Below, in pieces: positions 2,030-53,233 of a DNA stretch of 64,000 bases. The notes beneath the pieces were generated by a model that was not told where the DNA came from, did no database searches, and saw only the letters and a program-made list of their open reading frames with translations. The position numbers and the translations under genes are program-made. The first letter of the stretch is position 1. Each line of letters begins with the position of its first letter. This DNA comes from Branchiostoma floridae (Eukaryota > Chordata > Leptocardii > Amphioxiformes > Branchiostomatidae), in contig NC_049991.1 in NCBI RefSeq assembly GCF_000003815.2, positions 20,195,600 through 20,259,599 on the forward strand, given 5' to 3'.

Positions 2030-5000
2030 CTGAGAAGGAAAATAAGAAAACAAACATTCTCTATTTACTGCTAAGATTATTTTCTTGTGGCGCGATACAC
2101 AAATTAAAGAAAATACTTTTGTAAACTATTATCACAAAAAGCACAGATATAAATAAGTGTGCACTGTGCAGTGTTGAACGTCTAATAGGTGGACAAAAAA
2201 ACAGATGGTGAGTAAGCAAGCGAGTAATTATACAGTAATGTATATAATATTACTGATACTTTAAGCAAAAGGCATAAAACTGTGCAAAAATAAGTAAAAA
2301 TTGCCGAAATGGAATTCAAAATGTCCAAAACAAAAAAAAAACAACTTTCTACACATGACAGGCACACATTCTGCAGTATTTTAAAACTACTACTGTAACA
2401 GTGAAGATGGCCTACCTACACTATAGTATAATACAATCATGGCCATGCTAGCCTCGTTTTGGTGCAATGTCTCCAGATGACCCCAGAAAATGCAAAATGG
2501 CTACCATAATCAGGTAATATTATAATATTTCTTCTCCTAGTTTAAAGAATCCAAACAGATTACTTGAGGCAACAGGGAAAAGGCTGTCAGAAGAATGAAA
2601 CAGCAACACAAGTGCCAACTGAGTTGCTTGGCTGTACCTGGTCTCATGCAGCTTAAATGTAAGCCATGTTTGTAAAAGGTAGCTTTTTGAAATTATAAAC
2701 TTAGATATTGATAAAGAATTAAACAATGCATGTTATTTGTATGTGACTACTTAGGGCCAGTCACTGATGGGAGCTTACCCTGGTAAAAGAACACAGAAAT
2801 AAGTAAATAGATAAAAAATTATAACACAACTGAGTTGCTCTGCTGTACCTGGTTTCATGCAGCTTAACCAGCTCGTTACAGATCACCAGGGCAACGACCC
2901 AGAGTAACCCCAGTAACCATGCCGACAGCGGAACATCACCCAGGGAGAACTGCACCCTGTGGTTGGCTGAGGATATCGCCATGGCGACGGCAAAGTAGAT
3001 GACCTGCAGCATGAGACTGTGAGGAGGAACAGAAGGACGTTACTCTCGCCATAGCAATGATCACACTCAATTCTTGTATTCTGGAGTAGTTGTAGAAAGA
3101 CGTCTTTCTAGTTCAACTCAGGTTTATTCAAACATCCATAGTCCAATAGTCTTGGATTGTTTAACACACTGGACCGCTAAGTGACTTGGACCTCCAAGCT
3201 GCACCAGTGGTGTGATGAATGCTTTCCTTGCTTTGAATTATGGCCAACTTGCACAATGAGGTCCCAAGATCTTTCTTTAAACTGTTGAGATGCCAAAAAC
3301 TTAAGAGCATAAAGAGTTAGAGAGAAATGTTCAACTTTGCGCCAAGTGCCTTCACTGACTTTCATATGACCCCTGACCTGTACACTACATAACTCACGTG
3401 TCGACTCCATAGATTTACATACAAGAAAATGTGATAGAAGGCTGATACTTACATAACAAGAACACAGACCAGCCAGACTCTGTTGGTGAAGGGCAGTCTT
3501 CTCCACATGGGGTGGGACCTGTGTACGTAGCTCATCGATGTCACACCTGCATGGGATATAACAGTGGGAAAATAGAGCTTAGTGAACGTCAGAATTACTA
3601 TGCAATTCACTTGGCAAAAGCGTGATATTTGTACTCAATCCAATTGAGTTGGTAGAACTCTTTAGATATTATTTCTTTCTCTCATTCTTAGCTTGCTCTC
3701 ACTCACTATCCATGTTTAGATTATACTGCTGCTGGGATCCCTGCTGACGCAGGGGTAGGCAGCAGTCGGCTAGTCTTCACACTCAGTTTACTTGCATTGG
3801 TGAGCGTCAATTCATGTGTTCGAGTAATAATTCCTTTTCCATACAGCATCTGCTGTAACAGGTTTCTTCTGACTTAGTCACAAGTAATACCCAAATTTTC
3901 CCTGACTAGAAATGTCTATTTTACCAACCACACTGACAGAGTCAGCTGAAAGGTCTACTTCTTCCAAGTGTTGGTTTCATTGAATAGATTAATAATCTCT
4001 AACGTTTGACTCTGAAATGTCCACGTCAACTGGTCATCATGACTCACCAAAATACAGGACCAGGAGGAAGCAGCAGAACTCCTGTGCCAGGACCAGCCCT
4101 GTGGAACTATCACCCTCGTAATCATTCCACGACAGGGTCAGGTTCCTGAAGAGAAAGGTCAAACAGCTTCTGTTACCCTCAGGCTGATACAAGTTAAACA
4201 AAAGGGAAGACAGAGGTTTCAAGTTGCCAAGTTCAGATACCAGGCTACATACCACATGTGCATTACATTGTATGTTATAAATGTTGTTATGTACTGTTTT
4301 GGTAGATTGGGGTTACCTGTACAAACATCAAGTCAACTCTGATAGGAGGATGTAGATCTAGAGCTTCAGACAGATATCTTTGAATTGAGACAATCGAGCA
4401 GTGCTTCCTACAGATTTAAATTTTTTTCCATCCCACTTGCGTTGAAACTGTGAATTAAGGATCATGAAAATATATTTTTGACAGTTTCATGCCATGAAGT
4501 TCAGCTTTTTTAATGGATAAGGTGAAATCTTTGTCTGTCCAAAGAAACAAATTTCCGTCCTAAGATGCAGGGACAGTCCTGGAGACAGCCCTGCACTAGA
4601 GTTGCACACAAGAGCCACATGACCAAAGTATCTGAAGCAGAAAAAGGATGCAAAAATCTTGTTGTTACCTGTTCCCGAACACTGGATGACAGGCCTGCGA
4701 TGGGGACACCTTCGAGCAGACGGCGTGAAGAACGAAGGCGAAACACAGGAGACACACGCCGAGCGACGGGACGAACCTTCCCGCATAGTGGAGCGTGAAC
4801 TGCAGCAAGGACTGCGATAATACATACTATATTAGACAAAAGTACAACTTCTTACATGTACTTTGGAAGAACTGGGGAATACTGCATAATGACAGATGCT
4901 GAAGAAAATCATGTAACTGTTACAGAAACTACTACATTGTACAAAAACAGGATAAATATGATATGCTATGATTAAGAAACATGCTCTTGTAAATCTACGT

Positions 5001-53233: not shown

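What the first reader, a model, noticed from the sequence alone, without database searches (positions are those of the whole stretch)
2617..52304. Splice-junction-anchored duplications at 13 exons of two neighbouring genes
At 12 of 35 TMEM94 exons (3, 4, 7, 8, 12, 13, 20, 23, 26, 27, 28, 34) and GRB2 exon 3, a piece made of one exon end plus its own splice site and some intron is repeated, always into the intron. Unit lengths differ (about 25, 43, 61, 73, 79, 129, 158 bp) and so do the sequences, so this is a process and not one repeat family. Both donors and acceptors are affected. Purifying selection would explain why only units that leave one intact junction persist, but the density suggests these genomes generate boundary-spanning duplications often. 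I recall boundary-spanning minisatellites being reported at an amphioxus Adh gene; this window suggests they are common.
Basis: partly seen in the sequence, partly recalled or inferred. Interest (0 to 1): 0.9.

Follow-up and report, generated by a model that had tools for sequence, protein, structure and literature searches.

The report
Duplicated splice junctions in lancelet genes
In this lancelet genome small stretches of DNA that span the edge of an exon are often copied in tandem into the neighbouring intron; this is a known lancelet oddity ('mirages'), here counted in other genes as well, where it is common, favours splice junctions about two-fold, and seems to grow denser towards chromosome ends.

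Summary
TMEM94 (minus strand, 1960-33076, 34 coding exons in my model) and GRB2 carry same-strand copies of a splice junction at 15 of 66 junctions tested (14 of 60 TMEM94, 12 exons; GRB2 exon 3). Reverse-complemented introns gave none.

The phenomenon is published as 'mirages'. New here: 28 dynein and myosin genes, not chosen for repeats, give 133 introns. Of 32 local duplications in them 20 cross a junction, against 9.9 expected from random placement (P 4e-5); 21 of 266 junctions (8%) are affected. The excess also holds for young copies. A plain position-shift test shows no excess: short introns and long units explain about half the pattern. Breakpoints fall evenly around the junction. Unused copies keep GT/AG in 64 of 67 cases. 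A B. lanceolatum gene model holds three copies of the 73-bp exon-3 unit.

Unexpected: duplication density falls with distance from the chromosome end (rho -0.60, n=28 genes; post hoc). The window lies 2.1 Mb from an end, so it is probably denser than typical.

The parts
1960..33076 (-). TMEM94 coding exons 1-34 (host gene)
   Evidence: spliced alignment with P0002 and P0005; homologues
36118..53233 (+). GRB2 exons 1-4 (host gene)
   Evidence: spliced alignment; PDB match to GRB2 with a partly recalled query
31614..31848 (-). acceptor mirage of exon 3 (31530-31666), 73-bp unit x 3.2; also seen in a B. lanceolatum gene model
31055..31354 (-). acceptor duplication of exon 4 (30933-31135), shift about 127 bp, 77% identity
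30525..30987 (-). donor end of exon 4 copied 402 bp downstream (61 bp, 93%); a weaker copy at shift 211
27073..27310 (-). donor duplication of exon 7 (27269-27355), shift about 151 bp, 78%; the copy reads AT where the donor has GT
25793..26825 (-). acceptor mirage of exon 8 (25730-25843), 79-bp unit x 12.7; 12 of 12 junction-crossing copies keep AG
19259..20663 (-). donor mirage of exon 13 (20639-20760), 43-bp unit x 32
18337..18810 (-). donor part of exon 14 (18681-18880) duplicated, 166 bp, 94%, shift 308-311
18848..18985 (-). acceptor end of exon 14 duplicated, 36 bp, 92%, shift 102
14446..14643 (-). donor mirage of exon 19 (14632-14751), about 51-bp unit
11252..12379 (-). acceptor junction of exon 22 (11174-11280) copied 1076 bp away (52 bp, 90%)
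8755..8974 (-). donor mirage of exon 25 (8967-9066), 23-bp unit, with a longer 92-bp match
7362..8388 (-). donor mirage of exon 26 (8345-8453), 61-bp unit x 16.8
6901..7192 (-). acceptor duplication of exon 27 (6835-7018), shift 158 bp, 96%
2616..2867 (-). donor junction of exon 33 (2849-3016) copied 211 bp downstream (41 bp, 93%)
51104..52225 (+). acceptor mirage of GRB2 exon 3 (52182-52304), about 75-92 bp units, 9 junction-crossing copies, diverged (68-89% identity)
13302..14287 (-). 57-bp array wholly inside intron 20: the one large TMEM94 array that touches no junction

Best explanation
These are amphioxus 'mirages'. Step 1 (inferred): the germline makes small local tandem duplications (tens to about 200 bp) often, more so towards chromosome ends, probably by break repair with fill-in and end joining or by slippage, and about twice as readily for templates that include an exon edge as for intron interiors. 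Step 2 (inferred, fits the data): duplications inside exons are lost because they break the frame; those that span a junction and leave one intact copy next to the exon are close to neutral, because splicing uses the exon-proximal copy. Step 3 (shown in part): unequal exchange lengthens and homogenises some into arrays of up to about 32 units in the intron. Step 4 (shown for one case): an array can outlast a species split.
For: 15 of 66 junctions with clear copies, 0 in the reverse-complement control. Units differ in sequence and length. Independent sample: 20 of 32 clusters cross a junction against 9.9 expected, P 4e-5; young clusters (88% identity or more) 11 of 15 against 4.3, P 2.6e-4. Exonic share of the template averages 0.53 (n=28): no fixed breakpoint. 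Decoys keep GT/AG in 64 of 67 copies; across all loci donor G and T match in 0.97 and 1.00 of 68 copies, acceptor A and G in 0.95 and 0.94 of 65. In the exon-8 array decoys resemble each other (divergence 0.040 exonic, 0.019 intronic) more than the real copy (0.070, 0.070); the exon-13 consensus equals the real copy. A B. lanceolatum model (P0004) carries an extra 73 residues = 3 x 73 bp of the exon-3 unit, 86% identical over 72 residues to the window array. Density against distance from chromosome end: rho -0.60, P 6e-4, n=28.
Against: Circular-shift test: no excess of junctions inside duplicated DNA (TMEM94 11 of 66 against 12.6, P 0.77; batch 1 of the sample 15 of 178 against 18.3, P 0.87), and clusters touched in that batch 14 against 11.9, P 0.24 (not run on batch 2). 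Other nulls for batch 1 are weaker than the final one: 15 of 23 against 39.5%, P 0.011; 14 of 23 against 8.5, P 0.005. Sample exon ends rest on family or paralogue matches plus recalled splice consensus, not on RNA. The chromosome-end gradient was noticed in the same data that test it. Of thirty 3.3-kb myosin loci only one has duplications, so rates differ greatly between genes. No transcript data here show which junction copy is used.
Confidence: 0.68

Rival explanations
1. Geometry alone: tandem duplications arise evenly in introns and flanks; because introns are short (sample median 501 bp) and units long, many happen to span a junction, with no preference at all.
For: Circular shift shows no excess of crossed junctions; about a third of events are expected to cross by placement alone (9.9 of 32); duplication is frequent overall (32 clusters in 133 introns).
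Against: Event-based placement: 20 of 32 against 9.9 (P 4e-5), batches separately P 0.0015 and 0.0096; window 12 of 13 against 3.5.
Confidence: 0.27
2. Detection bias: one copy is held constant by selection on the exon, so junction-spanning duplications stay recognisable longer than intron-interior ones.
For: Follows from exon constraint; lower-identity clusters exist in both classes.
Against: The excess is as strong among young clusters: 11 of 15 at 88% identity or more, against 4.3 expected. In the four arrays measured, the exonic part is not better kept than the intronic part (real-to-decoy divergence equal in one, higher in two, lower in one).
Confidence: 0.12
3. The extra junctions are used: alternative or backup splice sites, or exons in the making.
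For: Decoys keep GT/AG; the NCBI B. floridae model P0001 contains duplicated units as coding sequence (66 and 65 extra residues) and the B. lanceolatum model P0004 73 residues; the globin paper proposes mirages as a route to intron gain.
Against: A 43, 61, 73 or 79-bp unit shifts the frame; the models P0002, P0005 and P0006 lack these residues; the globin paper reports that Adh3 and globin RT-PCR data suggest regular splicing (passage).
Confidence: 0.05
4. Site-specific insertion, as by introner-like elements or target-site duplication at AG|GT.
For: Copies include the AG|GT region.
Against: Sequences and lengths differ between loci; breakpoints are spread evenly around the junction; no shared unit was seen among the arrays listed by TRF.
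Confidence: 0.03
5. Assembly artefact.
Against: The PGBD5 repeats were confirmed in Sanger and Illumina data, though with different copy numbers in two assemblies (passages); the exon-3 unit also occurs in a B. lanceolatum model; many copies diverge by several to 30%.
Confidence: 0.02

Closest known systems
Amphioxus 'mirages' (Adh3, globins BflGb6 and BflGb9, troponin C, PGBD5)
   Same: Minisatellite-like tandem duplications of an exon-intron boundary, donor or acceptor, copies in the intron, splice signals mostly kept, boundary copy left out of homogenisation (passages in PMC3087553 and PMC3902484; the original Adh paper is not held)
   Different: Here 15 junctions in two neighbouring genes, plus 21 of 266 in other genes; rate against a placement null; a cross-species unit; a chromosome-end trend. 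Somatic instability, reported at Adh3, was not tested.
Small tandem duplications by fill-in at DNA breaks (CST, Pol alpha-primase; PMC8355091, abstract and section headings seen)
   Same: Short tandem duplication followed by end joining
   Different: Shown at induced breaks in mouse and human cells; nothing here identifies the enzymes
Human subtelomeric minisatellites (start of the abstract of PMC3486850 in a search listing; their clustering near ends is recalled)
   Same: Tandem arrays of tens of bp, denser towards chromosome ends
   Different: Here the trend reaches several Mb inward and the arrays often include coding exon ends

Membership tests
amphioxus mirage | tandem repeat spanning an exon-intron boundary of a gene | tested here: met
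   15 of 66 junctions duplicated; eight of them arrays by TRF, the others two- or three-copy duplications
amphioxus mirage | unit lengths and sequences differ between loci (10-160 bp published) | tested here: met
   23-158 bp; published lengths
amphioxus mirage | copies mostly retain AG/GT splice signals | tested here: met
   64 of 67 copies
amphioxus mirage | normal mRNA splicing despite decoys | not testable with these tools
   no RNA data; only that three of five Branchiostoma models lack the extra residues
amphioxus mirage | allelic length and somatic instability | not testable with these tools
   one assembly only
amphioxus mirage | host is a cephalochordate | tested here: met
   best hit P0001 is B. 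floridae TMEM94, contig length 22,407,120 equal to that of C13
introner-like element | shared inserted sequence at many introns | tested here: not met
   array units differ between loci; duplication clusters found are local

The most novel reading that the evidence does not exclude
The lancelet germline has a high, recombination-linked rate of small tandem duplication that rises towards chromosome ends and prefers exon edges; about one splice junction in six within 5 Mb of an end carries a mirage, so that intron ends there turn over quickly and supply ready splice sites for intron and exon gain, while splicing ignores up to some thirty near-identical decoys.
Probability: 0.35. Interest if true: 0.72.

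Novelty: new member of a known kind. Interest (0 to 1): 0.52.

Why it matters
If the rates hold genome-wide, lancelets are a natural experiment in two open questions: how a spliceosome picks one of many near-identical splice sites (exons 26 and 13 are followed by about 15 and 31 such donors), and whether tandem duplication of splice sites is a main route to new introns. A chromosome-end gradient would tie the process to meiotic breaks. In practice, duplicated units enter gene models as probably false exons, so lancelet annotations and protein comparisons need checking.

Tried and rejected
Promoter, RNA-family, protein-family and structure-prediction tools were not used: nothing in the finding called for them.

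First alignment with a human guide broke down in divergent parts (112 'exons', many spurious); replaced by P0002 and P0005. In one search three 3-bp 'exons' inside the exon-13 array, a displaced exon-13 donor and an empty first exon were dropped as artefacts; an empty first TMEM94 exon and the GRB2 'exons' beyond 53233.

'Anchored at the splice site' was rejected: breakpoints are even around the junction. A shared element was rejected. 'Old copies only' was rejected.

Left out of the event counts: clusters with shift over 400 bp (for example GRB2 48110-50666, exon 22 of TMEM94, L062 1841-2548); 16 sample clusters not in a confirmed intron, some of which overlap exon matches; among these are exon-interior pieces in introns (L072 3784-4038, L073 4744-5048). 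L064 1630-1929 was counted as internal though it overlaps an exon match. In L067 three copies of an exon end were called as exons by the paralogue method, so the intron of its first cluster is set at the last copy. L045 gave no confirmed intron. The 38 loci L001-L038 were not in that count (exon ends not refined): 1 of 30 myosin loci and 2 of 8 pattern-hit loci have clusters. Of the 21 dynein places (108 rows) 20 were fetched; of the myosin list (142 rows) 8 stretches.

Searches for print of a genome-wide count or a chromosome-end trend in lancelets; none seen in the listings. The library is partial.

Full report
WHAT THE WINDOW IS. The window lies at C13:20195600-20259599 of a 513-Mb genome. 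The best protein hit is Branchiostoma floridae TMEM94 (P0001) on a contig of 22,407,120 bases, the length of C13, so the window ends 2.1 Mb from the contig end. TMEM94 is on the minus strand at 1960-33076; GRB2 is on the plus strand from 36118.

THE OBSERVATION. With exons set by spliced alignment, each junction was compared with its own intron. 15 of 66 junctions have a same-strand copy that crosses the junction, score 30-103. The other 51 score at most 13, and reverse-complemented introns at most 12. Seven are tandem arrays called by TRF at exons 3, 8, 13, 19, 25, 26 and 27 of TMEM94; the GRB2 exon-3 region is an eighth, diverged array; the other seven are two- or three-copy duplications roughly 100-1076 bp apart. 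Of 17 local duplication clusters in TMEM94, 12 cross a junction by at least 8 bp on each side and two more (30525-30987 and 18848-18985) reach exon sequence at an exon end. The three others are a 57-bp array in intron 20 (13302-14287), a pair of similar intron ends (9610-10656) and a 60-bp pair 2 kb apart.

IS IT MORE THAN CHANCE? The window was picked because of the feature, so I took other genes by protein family: 8 myosin and 20 dynein stretches, then flanks of 10 of the dyneins whose exons were found by comparison among paralogues. That gives 133 introns with supported ends (89 and 44), median 501 bp; ends come from family or paralogue matches, reading phase and a recalled splice consensus, not from RNA. 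In them 32 duplication clusters with shift up to 400 bp were found; 20 cross a junction (12 donors, 9 acceptors; one cluster crosses both). If each template is placed at random in its own intron, with at most one unit reaching into the exon, 9.9 are expected (P 4e-5); batch 1 gives 14 of 23 against 7.3 (P 0.0015), batch 2 gives 6 of 9 against 2.6 (P 0.0096); young clusters (88% identity or more) 11 of 15 against 4.3 (P 2.6e-4). Two earlier versions of the null for batch 1 gave P 0.011 and 0.005.

AGAINST IT. Sliding the junctions along each gene gives no excess of junctions inside duplicated DNA: 11 of 66 against 12.6 in TMEM94 and 15 of 178 against 18.3 in batch 1; clusters touched are in excess in TMEM94 (11 against 6.2, P 0.002) but not in batch 1 (14 against 11.9, P 0.24) (batch 2 was not put through it). 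That null lets a random junction fall deep inside a kilobase array, which selection would forbid, so I prefer the event count; but the preference for junctions is about two-fold, not absolute, and about half of the pattern is geometry.

ANATOMY AND MECHANISM. The exonic share of the template averages 0.53 (n=28; 0.60 in 15 young ones; one of the 28, in L042, is an array artefact with share 0.99), so the splice site is not a breakpoint. One young duplication (L044) is head-to-tail with 2 extra bases at the joint; another (L042) has a 13-bp spacer continuing a TGTT run. This fits ordinary end joining or slippage; fill-in at staggered breaks is a known source of small tandem duplications (PMC8355091, abstract), but nothing here identifies it. 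Exons are GC-richer (0.54) than introns (0.39), a possible reason for the preference. Decoy copies keep GT/AG in 64 of 67 cases in the window; over all loci the donor G and T match in 0.97 and 1.00 of copies and the acceptor A and G in 0.95 and 0.94, about as well as the best-kept neighbours and better than most intronic ones. Copies in an array are not independent, so I claim only that decoys are not purged. The exon-8 array shows homogenisation that leaves out the real copy; the exon-13 and exon-26 arrays have a consensus with zero and one difference from the real copy, hence young.

AGE. P0004, a B. lanceolatum model, has 73 extra residues at exon 3, three 73-bp units read in three frames; it matches the window array at 86% over 72 residues. 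One mirage therefore predates the split of the two species, unless the same 73-bp unit was duplicated twice. P0001, the B. floridae model, contains 66 and 65 extra residues from the exon-8 and exon-14 duplications: probably annotation errors, but no RNA was seen.

CHROMOSOME ENDS. Over the 28 sampled genes, density of duplication clusters falls with distance from the chromosome end: Spearman -0.60, P 6e-4; covered fraction -0.66, P 1.3e-4. Junctions crossed: 16 of 102 within 5 Mb of an end, 5 of 164 farther in (odds ratio 5.9, P 3e-4). The 5-Mb line was drawn after seeing the data, two of nine near-end genes have only one cluster, and genes farther in can be rich too (L056 at 5.6 Mb, L061 at 8.0 Mb, five clusters each). 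That contig ends are chromosome ends is assumed from their sizes. Fresh genes are needed.

KNOWN OR NEW. [quoted passage not shown] Membership features that could be tested are met. I saw no genome-scale count, junction-against-interior test or chromosome-end trend in the listings; the library is partial. Verdict: new members of a known kind, with quantities that make the process testable.

Noticed in passing
L039-L076 (28 genes): Density of local duplications falls with distance from the chromosome end (rho -0.60); found post hoc.
   Followed up: partly
L009-L038: Of thirty myosin-head loci, 14 of them from a tandem myosin cluster at C9:6.37-6.61 Mb, only L010 has local duplications: a cold class of genes, or a cold region.
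   Followed up: partly
9610-9654 and 10612-10656: The 45 bp directly upstream of two neighbouring TMEM94 exons (acceptors at 9609 and 10611) are 87% alike: possibly an intron end copied from one intron to the next.
   Followed up: no
13302-14287: A 57-bp, roughly 15-copy array wholly inside a TMEM94 intron.
   Followed up: partly
L047 and L067 (C1:211800-220600): A dynein gene 0.2 Mb from a contig end with five junction-crossing clusters, richer per kb than TMEM94.
   Followed up: partly
L062 1810-1927 and 2417-2540: Two dynein exons that match the same stretch of the family profile (170-208 and 168-208): probably a duplicated exon.
   Followed up: no
L041 and L043: A 114-bp direct repeat with shift 172 and identical score in two different myosin genes: probably a dispersed element with an internal repeat.
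   Followed up: no
about 54400-54500: 100 N in the window: an assembly gap, downstream of GRB2 exon 4.
   Followed up: no
41832-41980: A 149-bp AC microsatellite in GRB2 intron 1, near exon 2.
   Followed up: no
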